NCBI GenBank assembly: GCA_947626195.1
Contig: CANQRF010000001.1
Coordinates: forward strand, 124,001-188,000
Reading direction: 5' to 3'
Length of the DNA: 64,000 nt
Source: an uncultured Eggerthellaceae bacterium
GTDB taxonomy: Bacteria > Actinomycetota > Coriobacteriia > Coriobacteriales > Eggerthellaceae
A program made the translations under genes and the position numbers. Below, in pieces: positions 294-34,925 of this stretch. Under the pieces are notes generated by a model. That model saw only the letters and a list, made by a program, of their open reading frames with translations, was not told the origin of the DNA and did not search any database. Every line of letters starts with the position of its first letter. The stretch's first letter is position 1.

Positions 294-2212
294 CGCTCCA
301 CCGCCGCTATGAAAGTACGGATCATTGCCTTAAGGGCTTCCACCTCTTCGGCGTCGACATCGTCGGGAATGAGGCTGATCAGATACTCCGCCTGCACAAT
401 CGATTCAGGATTTGAGTATGCCATTCTTAAAAGCCGTTCATAAAGGCCGTGGGGAATAAGTGCTCGAGAACGCGCGGTGCTGTGCGATAATTTCGATGTT
501 GGCTCTGTGTCACCACTATACTCGGCTTCCGGCATTCTGAACGCATGTGCAATATAGAGCGCAAGGGCACCCTGGTTAGCGGCCAGCATGGAATCGAGTA
601 ATGCGCGGCTGCGCATATCGAAATCCACCTCATCATCGTAAAACAGATCATGAGGACAGCAGAGAATGCATGATACAGCGTTATTGCCCTCGTCTTCCCC
701 CTCCACGATGAATATCGATGATACTTGCTCGAGCTTCAATGGGCCGAAGACGAGATGCTCGCTCCCTCCGTTTGAATTAATCCCAACCTTTTTCCACGAG
801 ACCGAGAGAAGCGGACGCATACGATACGAGATGCTGCCGCTCTCTTTGGTCGCTTTTTTCAATTTGTACGTGACGTCAAGGAAAATTGCGCCACCCTTCC
901 AGATTACCTTAACGGCTGTGAAGCTGATTGTTTTTACGCCGGCTTGAAATATTCGACTGAATTTCCGATTCTTTTCGTCGGCAGGTACAGGTGCGGGATC
1001 GGGTATATAGGGGGCAAACGCTCCTTTTGTCTTCTCGTCGCCGATGAATGATTTCGTGAATTGCTCGAATGTGAGCCGATGTGGCCTCACCGTAAGATGA
1101 AGCAGCGCTTCGACGTTGTTGATTGTGCCATTGCGGGAAGCATTGAGCGATCCGATATAGAGGTGGCGCTGAGAATTCGGCTCCTGCGCATAATAGATCT
1201 TCGCGTGGAGGTCTGAATAATCGGCTGCGAGAGGACCATCTTCTCCTTCGAGTTCTACATTTGCAAGCCACGAAACCGGCGCATAGCATTCATAGGCTTC
1301 CTTGAGCTCGTCGTCAATATTCTCAAGCGAGTCATCTCTGCTGATGAGCAGGTATTTTCCGCTCTGACCGCTGCGATGCTTCACAAATAATCGAAGCGGC
1401 GAATCTTCAGCACTGCTGAGAAACGGCGATACGACGAGTAGATGATGGTATTTTTGAGACAAAAGATCGATCGAACGAGCATCGAGCAGCATGCCCTCTT
1501 TGTCATCCACGGGACCGATCGGAAGAAACTCGACTGATGTGAAGTAGTTCTCATCGATCTCGAAATCGACGTGACTAACGGCGTCCGCGAGTTGTCGGAC
1601 ACGAGCCGAATGTGAGCCCCTCTTTCGCATGTTGTCTCTTTCCGTATCCGTGTACGAATCTCCTAAAGCGAGAAAATCAAGGAAGGCGGCAAGACGGTGG
1701 GCGCACTCGTCTCCCGCGCCGAGATGGCCATCAATGGAGATCGCAGCATCCCAAGAGGTGTCGAAGGTGAGATTGCGGCTCATCACGATGAGACGGTAGA
1801 GGTTTTCCTTATCCAGCTCAATCGGCTCGTATTCGACAACCCATACCTTAGGATGAAAGGACGAGAGTCCGTCTGCGGAGCGCTTATGGACGTGAACTTG
1901 GTGGATCATATTCTCAAGAAGAATCGCCAGACTTGAGGATCTCGCATCACCACCGATATCCGCGTTGATATGACCCTTATCGCAGTAGATGACGATTTTT
2001 CCTTGGAGCTCTTGTAGAGCGGCGAACAAGCTCACCGGATTGATGAATGCGAGCGATTCCGGTTCGAAGCCTAAGCCAAGGGGAATGCAGAGCCCAAGCA
2101 GAGCCCGCAGGTCGAGCGTGTATGTTGTGCCGACCGCAAATGAAGTTCTATATCCTTCAGGTGGTCTGAGCGTCTCGGGAAAGCTGAGACGGCCTTCGTC
2201 CATCTCAAGCAT
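290..2212 (-). CDS. Phospholipase D-fold protein of a putative defence operon
   Basis: About 640 residues. Two halves of an HKD-type phospholipase D active site are visible: FHPKVWVVEY near residue 120 followed by SRNLTFDTSWD, and DLHAKIYYAQ near residue 332 followed by YIGSLNASRNGTINNVE. Each half has the H-x-K with a downstream N/S-rich strand, so a paired PLD nuclease-like catalytic fold is likely. The C-terminal third is a beta-rich region of unknown role. I start it at the ATG at 2212, which has GGTGG five bases upstream and overlaps the DUF6361 stop by eight bases; a GTG at 2221 and an ATG at 2203 are alternatives. Its stop overlaps the helicase start. PLD plus helicase pairs recur in bacterial defence systems (DISARM DrmC is one case), but the companions here are different. 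Confidence 0.75.
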   Translation of the reverse strand: MLEMDEGRLSFPETLRPPEGYRTSFAVGTTYTLDLRALLGLCIPLGLGFEPESLAFINPVSLFAALQELQGKIVIYCDKGHINADIGGDARSSSLAILLENMIHQVHVHKRSADGLSSFHPKVWVVEYEPIELDKENLYRLIVMSRNLTFDTSWDAAISIDGHLGAGDECAHRLAAFLDFLALGDSYTDTERDNMRKRGSHSARVRQLADAVSHVDFEIDENYFTSVEFLPIGPVDDKEGMLLDARSIDLLSQKYHHLLVVSPFLSSAEDSPLRLFVKHRSGQSGKYLLISRDDSLENIDDELKEAYECYAPVSWLANVELEGEDGPLAADYSDLHAKIYYAQEPNSQRHLYIGSLNASRNGTINNVEALLHLTVRPHRLTFEQFTKSFIGDEKTKGAFAPYIPDPAPVPADEKNRKFSRIFQAGVKTISFTAVKVIWKGGAIFLDVTYKLKKATKESGSISYRMRPLLSVSWKKVGINSNGGSEHLVFGPLKLEQVSSIFIVEGEDEGNNAVSCILCCPHDLFYDDEVDFDMRSRALLDSMLAANQGALALYIAHAFRMPEAEYSGDTEPTSKLSHSTARSRALIPHGLYERLLRMAYSNPESIVQAEYLISLIPDDVDAEEVEALKAMIRTFIAAVER

Positions 2213-3485
2213 TGAAACCACCGGCTTGATCTATCTCTCGGATGATGGCAAGACCTTGATTGTAGCGATAAGGGAGCCTGAGACCGCCGCGCCAGCCAAT
2301 TTCTCCGAGATCGTCGCGACCGATTTTGACCTGCTGTTTTCTTTTGATGTCTCGCTCTCGCTCTCTCACTACACGTTTGAGCTTGTCAATATCGCTATCG
2401 AGCATCGCTTGCTGAGCCTTTTGCAGGAAATCTCTCAAAGGGAGGAAGCCTGCATGGTGGGTTAAATTGAGCTCGATTATCGTTTCGTCGATGCTGAGTT
2501 TGTGAGCGACTTCGCTTGCTCGGGGTGAGAACTGCTCCCAAGCATCGGCCCCTGCCCACTCGAGGCCCGTAAGCTGCATGTTGTAGGCGATGCGACAGCC
2601 GAGAACAAACTCACTGAAGCAATCAGCGAGCAAGCATAAGGCCGCCAACTTTGGGGATCGCTCTTCCAGCCTGTCGAAGCCGGCATGATGGAAGAAGGAG
2701 TGAAATGACGATTCCCCACCACCAAAATAATCATTCTCGTCAATCTGTTGCGATGCAAGGGCGATGGTACGGAGTGTTTCGTCCTGCATGAGAAGCGCAA
2801 AAAGCGATTTTGGCTGTTCCTTTATGATTTGAGTTTTGAGGAAGTCGGCTTCTTGGTCGGTGAGCGCGATCGAAGCGGAATCCCGCCAATTGCGCCATTG
2901 CTCTTCCCACGCATGCCAGCAGGTTGGCGGTATATTCCAGACGCTTCCAACGGCGACATTGTCATCATTTGCACCATCGTCGGTAGATTCGGACAGCGAT
3001 TCACGATAGCGCATGCGTGCATCTGAGGCATAAGCGAAGTAATGGGTGTAACTTGTGGGCGAGAACGGCTTCAGAAAACCAAGAGCATGCAGAGATGCCC
3101 AATAGATTTCGCCTGGCCCACGGCTTACCCACTTGCCTTGAGTAAGGGTGACTCTTCCGATGATGCCTTCATGGTTTTCTAAGCGGGAAAGCAGACCTCT
3201 TGCGCACTGTTCTTCAAGGTTGTTATATTCGGATCGGAGAGAACGCGGATCTCTGCGCTTTGAATCATTACCCGTTTCGAGCCCTTTCATGAGGTAGGCC
3301 GTCAAGAAGAAATACCGCGCCTTCGTAAACAACGTGGAGGTGCCGGGGAACAGTCGGTTCGCAAAAGCGTCTCGAACGACACCGATGCCGAGTTCATCGA
3401 CTGATCCGGGCTCCTGCAAGTTATGAAGCACCATCAGCGTCCGCTCGCGCTCCTCTGGGGAGAAATCTATCCAACCGATCTGCAT
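2205..3485 (-). CDS. DUF6361 family protein
   Basis: About 426 residues, first gene of the three-gene operon. The N-terminus IGWIDFSPEERERTL, then EPGSVDELGIG and FPGTSTLFTKARYFFLTAYL, matches what I remember of DUF6361, a family of unknown function found beside PLD-like proteins and helicases. No catalytic motif is recognised; the C-terminus is basic and helical (residues about 360-400, rich in K, R and E), compatible with nucleic acid contact. The start is uncertain: the ATG at 3485 lies just before the conserved segment and has a weak AGGA 12 bases upstream; a GTG at 3515 adds ten residues. I infer a sensor or adaptor role only from context. Confidence 0.7.
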   Translation of the reverse strand: MQIGWIDFSPEERERTLMVLHNLQEPGSVDELGIGVVRDAFANRLFPGTSTLFTKARYFFLTAYLMKGLETGNDSKRRDPRSLRSEYNNLEEQCARGLLSRLENHEGIIGRVTLTQGKWVSRGPGEIYWASLHALGFLKPFSPTSYTHYFAYASDARMRYRESLSESTDDGANDDNVAVGSVWNIPPTCWHAWEEQWRNWRDSASIALTDQEADFLKTQIIKEQPKSLFALLMQDETLRTIALASQQIDENDYFGGGESSFHSFFHHAGFDRLEERSPKLAALCLLADCFSEFVLGCRIAYNMQLTGLEWAGADAWEQFSPRASEVAHKLSIDETIIELNLTHHAGFLPLRDFLQKAQQAMLDSDIDKLKRVVRERERDIKRKQQVKIGRDDLGEIGWRGGLRLPYRYNQGLAIIREIDQAGGFNA

Positions 3486-3542
3486 GTTTTGGAAGGTTCC
3501 TAACTGCTGTGCCACGAGGTTACCCGCTTAATATTTTACAGC

Positions 3543-3794
3543 ATGCAAGCTTGTTGCATGACAGCATCGCCCTGTTTGCAGACTGTGTATAGTTTCGAGA
3601 TTAAGCATCACTCAAGGAAACCGAAGAACTCATTAAATGTTATGCGGTTAGTTCTTGACGACACGCCAAAGGCCAAAACGGAGCTGAAACGCCACCATAA
3701 CATGCATGTGCTCAAAGGAGACTGGTACGGAAATTTCGAATGTCATGTCGCAGACGCCGGAGATTGGTTACATTGGCATCTCAACTGCGGATAA
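3543..3794 (+). pseudogene. Degraded YafQ/RelE-type toxin remnant
   Basis: The short frame keeps pieces of the YafQ mRNA interferase family: YSFEI near the start, MRLVLDDTP in the middle and HVLKGDWYGNFECHVADAGDWL at the end (shown in parts: LKGDW, ECHV, DWL). Intact family members continue after DWL with a strand and a conserved His needed for catalysis; here the frame runs into HWHLNCG and stops. The linker between the first strand and the helices also looks scrambled. I read it as a toxin gene that has decayed by frameshift or deletion. It lies 58 bases from the start of the defence operon and converges with a ribbon-helix-helix remnant, so a complete toxin-antitoxin operon is not present. 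Confidence 0.45.
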
Positions 3795-3827
3795 CCCTTT
3801 TGAAGCGCCCTAAGCAAGCTTCGCTCT

Positions 3828-4061
3828 CTACGCGATGCCCGCCGTGCTGAGGTCCATTTCTACAAGATGGCGAAGGTAGTCGGAGCGTTTCATTCCGAGC
3901 TGTTTTGCCCGCTTGCCGAGCACTCGGAGCTTGAGGGAAGCTATCGCAATGATCTGGCTTCCTTCAGCAGTGCCTCCCGCTTCATGCCATCCTGCAAATG
4001 ACACGATATGACGTTGGCAATCGTAGTAGAATCGGGCGGGTCGGGATAGCTTCCCCGCCAA
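3828..4061 (-). CDS. Ribbon-helix-helix antitoxin-like small protein, possibly a remnant
   Basis: Seventy-seven codons. The last 35 residues, ASLKLRVLGKRAKQLGMKR then SDYLRHLVEMDLS, look like the ribbon-helix-helix fold of Arc/MetJ-type antitoxins (beta strand, helix with AKxLGMxRSDYLR, second helix). The first 40 residues do not look like such a domain and may come from an upstream fusion or frameshift, so the true start may be internal. It is convergent with the YafQ-like fragment, whereas antitoxin and toxin are normally co-directional. Probably a leftover of a rearranged toxin-antitoxin pair. Confidence 0.35.
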   Translation of the reverse strand: MAGKLSRPARFYYDCQRHIVSFAGWHEAGGTAEGSQIIAIASLKLRVLGKRAKQLGMKRSDYLRHLVEMDLSTAGIA

Positions 4062-4242
4062 GTCGACATGCGGCGGTCGATGCCGATAAGGCCTCTATTT
4101 TGCCAAGGGGCGCGGGGGTGATGGGGTGATGGGCTGAAGCGCGCGAATCCCCGTCACCTATACGCCGCCTTGTAGAAGGCGCATCATTGAAGTTGGGTTC
4201 GCAGCAAGCTGCGGTGCAAAAAGACGAAAGAGCGGGCATGCC
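4062..4242. other. Intergenic region before the methyltransferase
   Basis: About 180 bases between the small antitoxin-like gene and the divergent methyltransferase gene. I see no gene, tRNA or clear sigma-70 promoter. It presumably carries promoters for both flanking genes. Confidence 0.4.
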
Positions 4243-5148
4243 ATGAGTGAATTGAGCTTTTACGAGGCGATCGATTGGGCAAAGCTGTTTTGCGGCGTGG
4301 AGACGTTCCATCGCAAGGGCAAGCCTGGCAGCGAGCAGTCAAAGGCAGCTTGGAACGAGAAGGCGCCGTCGTTTGCCCACAAACCGGTGCGCTCCGGCTA
4401 TATCGCACAGCTCATCGAGGCGATGAATCTCGAGGAGGGCGAGACCGTCTTCGACATGGGCTGCGGCCCGGGAACGCTCGCGATCCCGCTCGCCCAGCAA
4501 GGCCACAGCGTCTGCGCGGTGGATTTCTCAGACGCCATGCTCGCCGAGCTCGAAAGAGCCTGCGCCCACGTTGGCGTCCCCCACATCGATGGCGACGCCA
4601 TGGCGGAGACCCTCGCGAATGTGGCCGACCTCCCCGCTGGAACGGTCGTGTCCTTCCGCCGCTCATGGCAGCAGGGCTGGGAGGGCCTCCCTGTTGCCGA
4701 CCGCGCCATCGCCTCACGCTCGCTTATTGTCGATGACCTCGCTGATGCGCTCGGGAAAATGGAGGCGCACGCCCACAAAAGCGTCGCCGTCACCGTCGGC
4801 GCAGGCGATCTTCCCAATCTCGATGCGCGCATCTTTCGCGCGATGAGCCGCGATCCTTACCCGATGCTCCATCGAGAGCTCATCTATCTCGTCAATTACC
4901 TGCTCGCCCAAAGACGGCCGCCGAAAATCGCCTACCTCTCCTACCCTGGCCGGTGGCATCGCCAAACCCGCGATGAGCTTGAAAAGGCGATTCGCCTTGC
5001 CCACGCGCCGAAAAACGATGCGGAGGAAGCGGCACTCGATGCCTATTTGAACGAGCACATCCGATTCAGCGAGGAACACGGCGACTACGAGCTCGATTAC
5101 CTGCGCGACGAGCGCTGGGCCTATGTCGAATACGATGTCGCCAACTGA
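4243..5148 (+). CDS. Class I SAM-dependent methyltransferase
   Basis: 301 residues. Motif I of the Rossmann-fold methyltransferases is plain at residues 67-77, VFDMGCGPGTL, followed by the acidic residue at the end of strand 2 in CAVDFSDAML. The N-terminus (FYEAIDWAKLFCGVE) and a central insert (SFRRSWQQGWEGLPVADRAI) resemble a group of Coriobacteria methyltransferases whose substrate I do not know. The C-terminus is acidic and helical. It stands alone between the toxin remnants and a hairpin at 5206-5233 and is convergent with the kinase-like gene. Substrate not assignable. Confidence 0.75.
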   Translation: MSELSFYEAIDWAKLFCGVETFHRKGKPGSEQSKAAWNEKAPSFAHKPVRSGYIAQLIEAMNLEEGETVFDMGCGPGTLAIPLAQQGHSVCAVDFSDAMLAELERACAHVGVPHIDGDAMAETLANVADLPAGTVVSFRRSWQQGWEGLPVADRAIASRSLIVDDLADALGKMEAHAHKSVAVTVGAGDLPNLDARIFRAMSRDPYPMLHRELIYLVNYLLAQRRPPKIAYLSYPGRWHRQTRDELEKAIRLAHAPKNDAEEAALDAYLNEHIRFSEEHGDYELDYLRDERWAYVEYDVAN

Positions 5149-12455: not shown

Positions 12456-12532
12456 GCGCCGTTACCTCAGCTGGATAGAGGGACTGACTACGAATCAGTA
12501 CGTCGGGGGTTCGAATCCCTCACGGCGCACCA
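12456..12532 (+). tRNA. tRNA-Arg (anticodon ACG)
   Basis: Full cloverleaf: acceptor stem GCGCCGT / ACGGCGC, D stem CCTC / GAGG, anticodon stem ACTGA / TCAGT with loop CTACGAA (anticodon ACG), T arm with TTCGAAT, discriminator A and an encoded CCA at 12530-12532. Decodes CGN arginine codons after deamination of the wobble A. It has its own strong promoter and is followed by a long hairpin. A 15-base inverted copy of its 3' end lies 60 bases downstream. Confidence 0.96.
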
Positions 12533-32281: not shown

Positions 32282-32475
32282 TGTGTTCAGTTCGCTTTTC
32301 GGCATGCGAACAAGTATCGAGAAAGTACTTGCGAGTATCTTAACACAAGATATGCGTTCCACCACGTGAAATCGCCCCTATCTTGTAAATGCCACCAATT
32401 TGCTCGATGAGCTTGATGACCCAGCGCCTTTCTGTTGCTTTCGCTGTCAATTTGTAGCTTCAAGTATTTGCTAAT

Positions 32476-32520
32476 AGACGATATGAGTAGAACATTGTGA
32501 GCCCCTGCTTCATATCGTCT
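32476..32520 (+). ncRNA. Leader hairpin of the IS110 element, candidate bridge-RNA segment
   Basis: Perfect 11-bp stem AGACGATATGA / TCATATCGTCT around a 23-base loop. The loop contains GTGAGCCCCT (32497-32506), the exact complement of AGGGGCTCAC (32600-32609) spanning the transposase ribosome binding site. A second hairpin GGCAACC / GGTTGCC lies at about 32572-32590. IS110-family elements encode a structured bridge RNA in a non-coding end; this region is the natural place for it. Assignment is inferred. Confidence 0.45.
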
Positions 32521-32610
32521 TTTCATATAACCGTGGGCCGAGGCTGATAATGGTCGTGTCTTACAAACCGGCAACCAGCCAGGTTGCCACAAATACGAGA
32601 GGGGCTCACT

Positions 32611-33726
32611 ATGAACCATCTTACCTCCATCGGCCTTGATGTACACGCCCGATCCATCACCGCGGTCGCACTCGACTCGTTTACAGGCGAGATCAGCTCG
32701 AAGAAGTTCAGGTATTCGCCTTCGGAAGTGGCGGAGTGGATCTTGTCCTTTGAGTCCCCCAAAGCGGTATATGAGTCCGGCGTCACGGGGTTTTATCTGG
32801 TTCGCGAACTCAGAGATCTTGGCGTGGACTGCATCGTGGGCGCCGTCTCCAAGATGCAGCGTCCGGCTGCCGACAAGCGCAAGAAAAACGACCGCAACGA
32901 CGCCGAGTTCCTAGCCCGGCAGCTTCTCGCCCACAACGTCATCGAGGTGTTCGTGCCCGACGTTGAGACCGAAGGCGCCCGCAACCTCTCACGCGTGCTC
33001 GAGGATATCCGCGACGACCTCACCCGAGCCAAGAACCGCCTCACACATCTGCTCATCCGCTGGGGATATGTCTGGAGCGAGTTCAGCGAAGAGGGCAAGC
33101 GCCGCGGCAGCTGGACGCGCGCGCATTGGGAATGGATACGCGCGATAGAGCTTCCGGACAGCGCAGCTCAAGAATCCCTCGACTACTACATCTCGGAGGT
33201 GCGCCATATCGAAGCGCAGAAGAAAGCCATAGAAAAGCGGATCGCCCAATACGCGCGGAGACCGCGCTGGAGGGAGCGCGTGGAGGCGCTTCGCTGCATG
33301 AAGGGCATAGAGACCATGACGGCATTCGCATTCGTGGTGGAGGCGGGCGTGTTCTCCCGATTCGACTCGGCGCGCGCTTTCGCGAGCTGGCTGGGGCTTG
33401 CGCCATCCGAGCATTCGAGCGGTGAGCGCATCTCACGTGGCGGTATCACCAAGGCCGGCAACTCCCATTTGAGAAAACTGCTCGTAGAGGCCTCCTGGCA
33501 CTACACGCGTGCCACCAAGGAGCGCAAGCGATCGCTCTTTGACGACTCGGTGCCGACGTCTGTATCCAACCACGCGGCTGCCGGCGTCAAGCGCCTCGTT
33601 GAGAGAAGGTCGCATCTTACCCACGATCTTCGCAAGCGACCCGTCGTCGCCAATGTGGCCACGGCGCGGGAGCTTGCCTGCTGGATATGGGCGCTCGGGC
33701 GCATGAGCGAAGGAACGCTTGCCTAA
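32611..33726 (+). CDS. IS110 family transposase (DEDD plus serine)
   Basis: 371 residues from the ATG at 32611 (GAGGGG seven bases upstream). DEDD RuvC-like N-terminal domain: IGLDVHARSI (first Asp), YESGVTGFYLVREL (Glu), KNDRNDAEFLAR (last two Asp). C-terminal Tnp_IS110/IS116 domain: LRCMKGIETMTAFAFVVE, FASWLGLAPSEHSSGE and AGNSHLRKLLVEASW with the proposed catalytic serine. Appears full length and intact. GC is like the host's, so the element is not obviously recent. Confidence 0.93.
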   Translation: MNHLTSIGLDVHARSITAVALDSFTGEISSKKFRYSPSEVAEWILSFESPKAVYESGVTGFYLVRELRDLGVDCIVGAVSKMQRPAADKRKKNDRNDAEFLARQLLAHNVIEVFVPDVETEGARNLSRVLEDIRDDLTRAKNRLTHLLIRWGYVWSEFSEEGKRRGSWTRAHWEWIRAIELPDSAAQESLDYYISEVRHIEAQKKAIEKRIAQYARRPRWRERVEALRCMKGIETMTAFAFVVEAGVFSRFDSARAFASWLGLAPSEHSSGERISRGGITKAGNSHLRKLLVEASWHYTRATKERKRSLFDDSVPTSVSNHAAAGVKRLVERRSHLTHDLRKRPVVANVATARELACWIWALGRMSEGTLA

Positions 33727-34046
33727 GGACAAGAACCGCTCCATAGCCATCATTCCCCGAACCTTTTCCCTATCGACTGGTCGTTGGATGCGATCCCAGA
33801 TCTAATTTTGAGCATCGGCAAGTCCGACACGCTCGTCAATAGACTCTTCCAATGTCGATGGTGCGCGCATCCAGCCGTAGCAACGAAATGCGAAGCCAGG
33901 CCATCCAACATATTCGGGCCCTGATGCAGCTTGCTTTCGACAGCAAGCGCTAGTCTGAGGATGGCAACCCGCGAATATGAAACTGCGAATACGAGCGTCG
34001 GTTTGAGGACACTGCCTGTCGGAAGAGGCCATCGGGTGATGATAGA
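33727..34046. other. Non-coding region after the IS110 transposase
   Basis: About 320 bases with no convincing gene. It must contain the right end of the IS110 element. The word GGTCGT plus TG follows at 33779 and also occurs in the left flank near 32550. Confidence 0.3.
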
Positions 34047-34086
34047 AAAGGCCCAGGTCGGGAATTTCTTCCCGGCCGGGGCCTTT
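34047..34086. terminator. Strong bidirectional terminator
   Basis: Long stem AAAGGCCC-aGgtCGGGAA / TTCCCGgCCg-GGGCCTTT with a TTTC loop; followed by ATTG on the plus side and TTTTCTAT on the minus side. It insulates the TetR gene from the IS region. Confidence 0.75.
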
Positions 34087-34178
34087 ATTGCCTCTTGACC
34101 ATGTTCTACTCATATGAAAATTATAGGCGTAGAATGTTGCGGAAACGAATCAATCAATCTATCGGAGGGTCGGCACTA

Positions 34179-34925
34179 ATGGTTCGCAAAGCACAGGGCG
34201 AGAAGAAAAAAGAGCTTATCATCGACGTGAGTAAACCTCTCTTCTATTCGAAGGGATACACCGACACAACCTATGGCGATATCGCCGAAGCGGCAGATAT
34301 TCCCGTTGGGTCAATTGCTTACCACTTTCAGTCTAAGCGCAATCTCGCGGCGGTAATTCAAGAGGAATATCAGAAGCAAAATAAGCGCTATATGGAGAAC
34401 CTTCTCGGTGACAAATACAGTAAGACCGTTCTTATGGCGCTTGAAATCCTCAATATGTGGAAACGCTACTTCGAAGACGTTCGACTGCGAAGGTTCATGC
34501 TCGAGCTCAATATGGAACATGAACTCGTGAATTACTGTTTCGATTACATCAAATATTTGTTTGAACTGGTAAAAGAAGAACAAGGCATTACGATTCCCGA
34601 ATCTGAAATGGATTTCATTACAGTAACTCAAGTAAATTTGACTTCTGAGTTAATGATTCTCATCAATTCGAATCCGGGTAAATACAGTTATCATGAGGTC
34701 GCAGAATATGCCATCCGAACGTTTTGCAATCTCATTCACATGAATCCGGAGATAACCGCAGCAGTGATTACTTTCGCGGAACAAGTCTACGAACTACTTC
34801 CTATCGACAACCGATATTTTTCAGATTTTGAATACAGCAAAAAATATATACATAAGGTCGATTTAGAAGACCTTCCTAACGAGAGCCCGGAACTTGCTCC
34901 TTACAGAAAAACTAACAATTCGTAA
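34179..34925 (+). CDS. TetR/AcrR family regulator
   Basis: 248 residues from the ATG at 34179 (GGAGG nine to ten bases upstream). TetR helix-turn-helix: KKKELIIDVSKPLFYSKGY, TDTTYGDIAEAADIPVGSIA and YHFQSKRNLAAVI. The ligand domain (about 60-230) is unlike any subtype I know. Codon use is AT-richer than the neighbours. It is convergent with the MFS-hydrolase operon, which has a perfect 22-bp palindrome over its promoter, so it is the likely repressor of that operon. Confidence 0.88.
   Translation: MVRKAQGEKKKELIIDVSKPLFYSKGYTDTTYGDIAEAADIPVGSIAYHFQSKRNLAAVIQEEYQKQNKRYMENLLGDKYSKTVLMALEILNMWKRYFEDVRLRRFMLELNMEHELVNYCFDYIKYLFELVKEEQGITIPESEMDFITVTQVNLTSELMILINSNPGKYSYHEVAEYAIRTFCNLIHMNPEITAAVITFAEQVYELLPIDNRYFSDFEYSKKYIHKVDLEDLPNESPELAPYRKTNNS

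What the first reader, a model, noticed from the sequence alone, without database searches (positions are those of the whole stretch)
32476..32609. IS110 leader hairpin whose loop is the exact complement of the transposase RBS
An 11-bp perfect stem presents a 23-base loop with GTGAGCCCCT; the reverse complement AGGGGCTCAC covers the Shine-Dalgarno of the transposase 94 bases downstream. IS110 elements encode bridge RNAs in this end. The pairing suggests the same RNA could also repress translation, in cis or in trans, a dual function not described to my knowledge.
Basis: partly seen in the sequence, partly recalled or inferred. Interest (0 to 1): 0.65.

Follow-up and report, generated by a model that had tools for sequence, protein, structure and literature searches.

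The report
Jumping gene that mutes its transposase
The start of this bacterial jumping gene's message carries a stretch that base-pairs with its own ribosome-binding site, and relatives change both partners together, so it most likely keeps the transposase scarce; a similar switch is already known in one relative, and the guide RNA lies at the other end.

Summary
In detail: an 11-bp stem (32476-32486/32510-32520) with a 23-nt loop whose GTGAGCCCCT (32497-32506) complements AGGGGCTCAC (32600-32609), covering the transposase Shine-Dalgarno (SD); the match extends to 13 of 14 through the AUG.

The pairing is conserved and compensated. Of 85 non-redundant IS110-family leaders, 65 pair at <=10/200 shuffles, against 3 of 39 ordinary genes. 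For 33 leaders with distinct SDs, 0 of 20,000 reassignments pair as well. Unguided alignment folding recovers anti-SD:SD plus a GUGG:CCAC helix in three of four hand-made subgroups (58 of the 85 leaders).

Best reading: a cis-acting leader that buries the RBS. A predicted circle-junction promoter would usually put the anti-SD near the mRNA's 5' end. Synonymous choices in tnp codons build an antisense -10 box, suggesting an antisense RNA.

The bridge-RNA premise fails: the long non-coding region is downstream of tnp, folds with covariation, and only it matches its own right target flank (0/5000 permutations). The 11-bp stem is not the conserved part. RBS burial plus antisense RNA is published for ISPpu9 (PMC8450116); new here are breadth and compensatory evidence. 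Nothing is shown experimentally.

The parts
32477..34115 (+). IS110-family element, left tip GACGATATG to right tip CATAT (ends +/- 2 nt core)
   Evidence: inverted repeat 32481-32498/34098-34115, 17 of 18, first 15 bp perfect; ends set by multicopy relatives
32493..32506 (+). anti-Shine-Dalgarno segment CATTGTGAGCCCCT
   Evidence: 13/14 complementary to 32600-32613; conserved and compensated in relatives
32600..32613 (+). transposase RBS and start codon AGGGGCTCACTATG
32476..32520 (+).
   Evidence: in nested folding it forms in this element's read-through RNA
32533..32590 (+). helix GTGG (32533-32536) : CCAC (32587-32590) inside the leader
   Evidence: 100% of cells paired in 20 leaders, U-A to C-G in 3
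32511..32597 (+). middle helix CATAT (32511-32515) : ATACG (32593-32597), 4 of 5 pairs in this element
   Evidence: all 5 pairs have compensatory changes in the group of 20
32477..32482 (+). -10-like GACGAT at the left tip (half of the predicted junction promoter); predicted start about 32489
   Evidence: start site is inference
34095..34100 (+). -35-like TTGACC at the right tip (other half of the predicted junction promoter, about 17-nt spacer in the circle)
32611..33726 (+). transposase gene, 371 aa (DEDD_Tnp_IS110 + Transposase_20)
32618..32623 (-). predicted antisense -10 box TAAGAT in codons 3-5, pointing back over the RBS and leader
   Evidence: synonymous-site excess in relatives, control genes; position
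33727..34115 (+). downstream non-coding region holding the bridge/seekRNA-like RNA; target-binding domain about 33773-33886, guide-like TAATTTT 33803-33809 against right flank AAAATTA 34117-34123

Best explanation
The feature is the 5' leader of an IS110-family transposase gene, in an element with IS1111-type architecture. A 10-14 nt segment of the leader (anti-SD) pairs with the ribosome-binding site and AUG, and this helix closes a structured leader that also contains a GUGG:CCAC helix. In cis, the fold hides the RBS and keeps transposase synthesis low, also on mRNA from the promoter that forms when the two ends join in the circular intermediate. An antisense promoter built into tnp codons 3-5 probably makes an RNA over the same leader that modulates the fold, as Asr9 does in ISPpu9. 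The guide (bridge/seek) RNA is a separate RNA encoded downstream of tnp. Shown here by comparison: the pairing and its compensation, the ends, the downstream guide-like RNA, the synonymous-site bias. Inferred: transcription starts, repression, the existence and effect of an antisense RNA.
For: Pairing <=10/200 dinucleotide shuffles in 65 of 85 non-redundant leaders and <=2/200 in 42 of 85, against 3 of 39 and 1 of 39 (mononucleotide shuffles) for ordinary genes of the window. Covariation: 33 leaders whose SDs differ by >=4 of 15 bases score 25.0 on average with their own SD against 19.1 (sd 0.56) when reassigned, 0 of 20,000 permutations. Examples of changed pairs: GTGAGCCCC/GGGGCTCAC, GGAAGCCCC/GGGGCTTCC, TCGGGACCTC/GAGGTCCCGA, GGCAGACCTC/GAGGTCTGCC, GAGAAGACCCC/GGGGTCTTCTC. 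Unguided RNAalifold recovers anti-SD:SD and GUGG:CCAC (GCGG:CCGC in A5) in A1 (20 leaders), A3 (16) and A5 (9). On A1, 95.7% of cells are paired, against 85.0% in shuffles (0/500) and at most 58.8% when slid. Nested folding: RBS unpaired probability 0.167 on the predicted junction transcript against 0.374 with the anti-SD complemented; lower in 69 of 84. Antisense -10: 5.11 against a synonymous null of 1.36, above null in 84 of 85, flat in six later codon windows; 39 control genes 1.69 against 0.92. Third-base T 0.77 vs 0.13 (n=73) and 0.64 vs 0.09 (n=72) at the two codons concerned, with no excess of third-base A there (motif found in 73 of 85). Precedent: mutations weakening the ISPpu9 5'-UTR fold raised reporter activity 26-fold (PMC8450116, section 18).
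Against: 20 of 85 leaders exceed 10/200 shuffles, one of them (L031) 188/200. Unguided folding of A4 (13 leaders) does not find the helix, and 27 of the 85 leaders were put in no alignment. In A1 most compensation is in the middle helix; of the 4 anti-SD:SD pairs only one has changes on both sides (2 sequences), and two of the five measures separate weakly from shuffles (10/500 and 119/500). Of 11 scored plasmid-borne distant relatives only 4 score >=27; the other 7 score 14-20.5, near the control mean, and no shuffles were run on them. Leaders are related, so the 85 are not independent. The anti-SD used in the folding control was itself chosen for complementarity. The finder of the ends required T[TA]GAC and GA---TAT, so the counts of promoter hexamers are partly by construction; in L001 and L117 the scoring preferred TTGCC(T/A)-17-CATATT. 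In nested folding this element's read-through RNA has a more open RBS (0.32) than its junction transcript (0.04); over all leaders the two do not differ much (0.180 against 0.167). The full antisense promoter scores only 5.65 against 4.57 shuffled, above in 47 of 61, and the sense strand also shows -10 excess in codons 2-9 (2.88 against 0.75). Smaller third-base T excesses occur at other offsets (0.26 vs 0.06 one codon earlier, 0.25 vs 0.09 just before the Asp). No transcript or protein was measured.
Confidence: 0.7

Rival explanations
1. Read-through guard as in IS10/IS50 (recalled): only transcripts entering from outside, or from the circle junction, carry the anti-SD and are silenced, while the element's own internal promoter starts after it and is translated.
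For: A promoter-like TTCATA-18-GATAAT (32522-32551) lies between anti-SD and SD in the window, and the same site gives the best internal score (8.4) in L001, L009 and L010. A transcript starting after the anti-SD has a more open RBS (0.391 against 0.167; junction transcript lower in 70 of 84).
Against: Over 61 elements the internal promoter score barely exceeds shuffles (4.56 against 3.67, above in 40 of 61), while the joined ends score 8.92 against 4.08 (61 of 61, with the caveat that the ends were selected on TTGAC). One subgroup lacks the GATAAT block (A3, by eye).
Confidence: 0.2
2. The leader is itself a functional small RNA (bridge/seekRNA or a second transposase-bound RNA) whose closing stem happens to overlap the RBS; folding as RNA and translation exclude each other.
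For: The leader is compact and structured with covarying helices.
Against: No match of either flank to the leader beyond permuted assignment in four tests (lowest 797 of 5000), whereas the downstream region matches the right flank (0 of 5000). The downstream region is the longer one in each of the 61 complete elements listed and folds with covariation in the 17 aligned.
Confidence: 0.07
3. The complementarity is a DNA-level inverted repeat (transposase or host factor site, or cruciform) and not an RNA pairing.
For: The segment overlaps the subterminal inverted repeat at the left end.
Against: The matched partner tracks the SD/AUG position in very different sequences, and further nested helices covary in the same register.
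Confidence: 0.06

Closest known systems
ISPpu9 tnp leader with Asr9 and Ssr9 (Pseudomonas putida KT2440; PMC8450116)
   Same: IS110-family element; structured tnp 5'-UTR predicted to bury the RBS; antisense promoter in the first tnp codons; a downstream RNA on the tnp strand.
   Different: 5'-UTR of 244 nt there (mapped), about 122 nt predicted here. In ISPpu9 the antisense -10 overlaps the RBS, so that RNA can open the fold; here the predicted antisense start is near the AUG and its RNA would also cover the RBS, so its effect could be the opposite (inference). That paper says the family shows no clear terminal inverted repeats; this element has a 15-bp perfect one. ISPpu9 has experiments; here only comparison. 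The ISPpu9 sequence itself was not examined.
IS1111-group elements with bridge/seekRNA in the right end (PMC11187229, PMC11208160)
   Same: Short left end, long downstream non-coding region, subterminal inverted repeats, promoter formed at the circle junction.
   Different: Transposase of 371 aa against 330-350 aa stated for IS1111. The passages and sections I read of those papers do not mention an anti-SD leader.
IS10, IS50 and IS200 translational control (recalled; antisense control of IS10, IS30 and IS200 also in the PMC8450116 discussion)
   Same: Transposase start signals hidden by RNA structure and/or antisense RNA.
   Different: Unrelated DDE or HUH elements; there the hiding structure is tied to read-through transcripts (recalled).

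Membership tests
IS110 family (DEDD transposases) | DEDD_Tnp_IS110 N-terminal and Transposase_20 C-terminal domains | tested here: met
   PF01548 49.3 bits (cut-off 29) and PF02371 84.2 bits (cut-off 21.3)
IS1111 group | subterminal inverted repeats of 7-17 bp (PMC11208160) | tested here: met
   32481-32498/34098-34115, 17 of 18 complementary, 15 bp perfect; repeats also in relatives
IS1111 group | longer non-coding region, with the guide RNA, downstream of tnp | tested here: met
   389 nt downstream against 134 nt upstream; covarying fold; guide match to right flank 0/5000
IS1111 group | transposase of 330-350 aa (PMC11187229) | tested here: not met
   371 aa; so I say IS1111-type architecture, not IS1111 member
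IS1111 group | placement in the transposase phylogeny | not tested
   no tree was built; no curated reference set was at hand
   leader against left/right flank, both senses: 797 to 4270 of 5000 permutations at least as high
ISPpu9-type RBS-burying leader with antisense RNA | leader fold that pairs the RBS | tested here: met
   by comparison and folding only
ISPpu9-type RBS-burying leader with antisense RNA | antisense promoter in the first tnp codons | tested here: inconclusive
   -10 box strongly favoured by synonymous choice, -35 and full-promoter score weak; no RNA measured
ISPpu9-type RBS-burying leader with antisense RNA | weakening the fold raises translation | not testable with these tools
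   needs reporter fusions

The most novel reading that the evidence does not exclude
A general off-switch of IS110/IS1111-type elements in several phyla (Actinomycetota, Pseudomonadota and, from one Butyrivibrio element, Bacillota): the promoter formed at the circle junction makes an mRNA whose own 5' end silences its RBS, while an antisense promoter written into the synonymous sites of the first tnp codons, just before the first catalytic Asp, controls that fold. Guide RNA and transposase output would thus be uncoupled on one circle.
Probability: 0.35. Interest if true: 0.65.

Novelty: new variant of a known kind. Interest (0 to 1): 0.5.

Why it matters
IS110/IS1111 recombinases are being developed as RNA-guided genome-writing tools, but how the natural elements keep their recombinase in check has been studied in few cases. 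A covarying RBS-occluding leader plus a codon-embedded antisense promoter would make the ISPpu9 mechanism a family-wide rule that can be tested with simple fusions, and would explain part of the low transposase expression of integrated copies.

Tried and rejected
Bridge RNA in the left end: rejected on architecture, fold and flank matching. Rfam: only a tRNA at 12456-12529 reaches its cut-off in the window; on 32400-34200 two sub-threshold hits, a picornavirus CRE and a lncRNA, judged chance. The internal GATAAT as a general promoter: not supported over 61 elements, kept as a rival. Sequence similarity between leader and downstream region, as a sponge pair would need: own 7.54 against 7.42 (375 of 2000) and 7.66 against 7.49 (204 of 2000), not significant. 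Pairing of codons 3-5 with the left tip as the reason for the T bias: seen by eye in some relatives (L117, L021) but not in others (L088, L105, L128), so not general. Viral contigs: 5 stretches matched, none encodes a relative. Phage records: 7 hits, all <60% identity, not followed. Unguided folding of A4 did not support the helix. Sampling: the matches fetched were picked by hand from listed ones; the list was capped, and not all listed places were fetched. Loci dropped: L066 (no N-terminus), L099 (start not credible), L002 (no tnp hit), leaders shorter than 125 nt and near-duplicates; 1 of 85 without a recognised left tip was left out of the 84 folded; 24 of 85 without both ends recognised were left out of the 61; 12 of 85 without the codon anchor motif were left out. 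L163 was fetched but not scored. The ten library searches are listed in the full report.

Full report
What was checked. The match reaches 13 of 14 bases and includes the start codon. It exceeds chance in this sequence: 0 of 200 dinucleotide shuffles, 4 of 3000 mononucleotide shuffles.

What it sits in. The gene 32611-33726 encodes a 371-aa transposase with both IS110-family Pfam domains. An inverted repeat (17 of 18, 15 bp perfect) and comparison of multicopy relatives place the ends at GACGATATG (32477) and CATAT (34115). The upstream non-coding end is 134 nt and the downstream one 389 nt. A short left end, a long right end and long subterminal repeats are what the literature gives for the IS1111 group, whose guide RNA is in the right end (PMC11187229: abstract, sections 6 and 13 and passages seen; PMC11208160: passages seen). 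The transposase is longer than the 330-350 aa stated for that group, so I claim IS1111-type architecture only.

Relatives. Matches at E <= 1e-40 were found in 32 of 138 genomes searched of the family, 87 of 395 of the order and 13 of 396 drawn from the phylum, and in 8 loci of named genome contigs (Ellagibacter, Adlercreutzia, Gordonibacter, Rubneribacter, uncultured Eggerthellaceae, Butyrivibrio). A hand-picked part of the listed matches was fetched.

Where the guide RNA is. The downstream region of 17 relatives folds unguided into a long stem around variable loops, with 10 of 24 pairs showing compensatory change. In 58 elements with distinct downstream regions, the reverse complement of the right target flank matches the element's own downstream region better than reassigned ones (6.78 against 5.77 nt, 0 of 5000). 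The right flank in the same sense and the left flank in both senses do not reach significance (355, 451 and 4274 of 5000), and the leader shows nothing in four tests (797 to 4270 of 5000). In the window the match is TAATTTT (33803-33809) against AAAATTA (34117-34123) (by eye). So the premise that the bridge RNA lies in the left end does not hold here.

The leader in relatives. Of 159 loci, 157 gave a transposase start; after removal of near-duplicates, short leaders and one bad start, 85 leaders remained, the window's among them. The 3' end of the best upstream partner of the -18..+5 region lies between -120 and -71 in 77 of 85. The score reaches <=10/200 dinucleotide shuffles in 65 of 85 and <=2/200 in 42 of 85; 20 of 85 do not reach 10/200. 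For 39 ordinary genes of the window the figures, with mononucleotide shuffles, are 3 and 1. The sequences differ widely while pairing is kept. For 33 leaders with distinct SDs, reassignment lowered the mean from 25.0 to 19.1 and never reached the observed value in 20,000 permutations.

Fold. I put 58 of the 85 leaders into four subgroups by eye. RNAalifold, given no hint, found anti-SD:SD, a middle helix and GUGG:CCAC in A1 (20 leaders) and the same plan in A3 (16) and A5 (9, there GCGG:CCGC). It did not find it in A4 (13). Named-structure counts on A1: 95.7% of cells paired against 85.0% in shuffles (0 of 500) and at most 58.8% when slid; 28 cells changed on both sides against 7.4 (0 of 500); pairs with such a change 7 against 4.2 (10 of 500); further pair types 15 against 13.6 (119 of 500). 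In A1 most compensation is in the middle helix; one of the four anti-SD:SD pairs has it. In A3 several anti-SD:SD pairs do, such as C-G to U-A in 6 and 7 of 16. In nested folding it competes with the RBS block in this element's read-through RNA (RBS unpaired 0.32 against 0.04 in the junction transcript), but over all leaders read-through and junction transcripts are similar (0.180 and 0.167). Pseudoknots were not modelled.

Promoters. Joining the ends gives TTGACA-N17-GACGAT-like junctions. The TTGAC core is in 61 of 61 complete non-redundant elements (TTGACA 52, TTGACG 6, TTGACC 2, TTGACT 1), but the finder required T[TA]GAC and GA---TAT, and the score gain over shuffles (8.92 against 4.08) shares that bias. 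When the right end was sought by inverted repeat alone, ttgac was visible before the repeat in nearly all good matches of the part of the output shown. With a start about 7 nt after the -10 (assumed), the anti-SD begins 1-20 nt after the start in 44 of 61 elements, 23-68 nt after it in 14, and before it in 3.

An antisense promoter in the coding sequence. At the two codons just before the T-x-I-G-L-D motif (found in 73 of 85) the third base is T in 0.77 and 0.64 of cases, against 0.13 and 0.09 for the same amino acids elsewhere in the gene, with no excess of A; other offsets show at most 0.26 against 0.06. Read on the other strand, this makes -10 boxes such as TAACAT, TATACT, TACGAT, TAGAAT and TATAAT. 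The score is 5.11 against a synonymous null of 1.36 (84 of 85 above null; 55 of 85 at p<=0.05), and flat in six later windows. Control genes give 1.69 against 0.92, 4 of 39 at p<=0.05. The sense strand shows a smaller excess (2.88 against 0.75), so part may be A+T bias near the start; the full antisense promoter scores 5.65 against 4.57 shuffled, with the -10 at +10 to +19 in 44 of 61. I regard an antisense RNA as likely, not shown.

Reach. Four of 11 scored plasmid-borne distant relatives (Gordonia, ISSso6 in Shigella boydii, Salipiger, Klebsiella) score >=27; the other seven score 14-20.5, near the control mean. One Butyrivibrio element (L040) scores 23.5, 3 of 200 shuffles. The sampling was not designed to measure frequency.

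Known or new. Ten library searches were made (one search failed). The closest precedent is ISPpu9 (PMC8450116; abstract, sections 16, 18, 24 and passages seen): the tnp 5'-UTR likely buries the RBS, weakening it raised activity 26-fold, antisense Asr9 helps and Ssr9 counteracts. In these searches I saw no report of compensatory anti-SD pairing across IS110-family elements, or of synonymous-site evidence for antisense promoters in them; most subscription papers are not in the library and most listed papers were not opened. Hence 'new variant of a known kind'.

Noticed in passing
G000:C13:37599-38648 and G000:C9:41518-42567 (L054, L059): Two further IS110-family transposases (39% and 37% identical) in the same genome; the L054 leader pairs its own SD with a different sequence (GGAGCCCCTTTT/GAAGGGGGCTCC).
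   Followed up: partly
right flanks of G672, G369 and G101 copies (L091, L151-L154, L048, L012): Target flanks often start with a run of A followed by G+C-rich sequence, as if elements insert at intrinsic terminators (by eye).
   Followed up: no
window 32522-32551 (+): Promoter-like TTCATA-18-GATAAT between anti-SD and RBS; a transcript from it would lack the anti-SD.
   Followed up: partly
L040 (Butyrivibrio), right end: The terminal repeat itself contains GGAGGTCAT, so terminal repeat and anti-SD overlap almost wholly.
   Followed up: no
G000:C4:58656-58730 (L002): A 75-base stretch 81% identical to query bases 352-426 (within the transposase gene), the only other DNA match in the genome at E <= 0.001.
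   Followed up: no
tnp codon of the Val after the first catalytic Asp (about 32641): Third-base A is raised at this codon in relatives (0.19 against 0.05), unexplained by the -35 idea.
   Followed up: no
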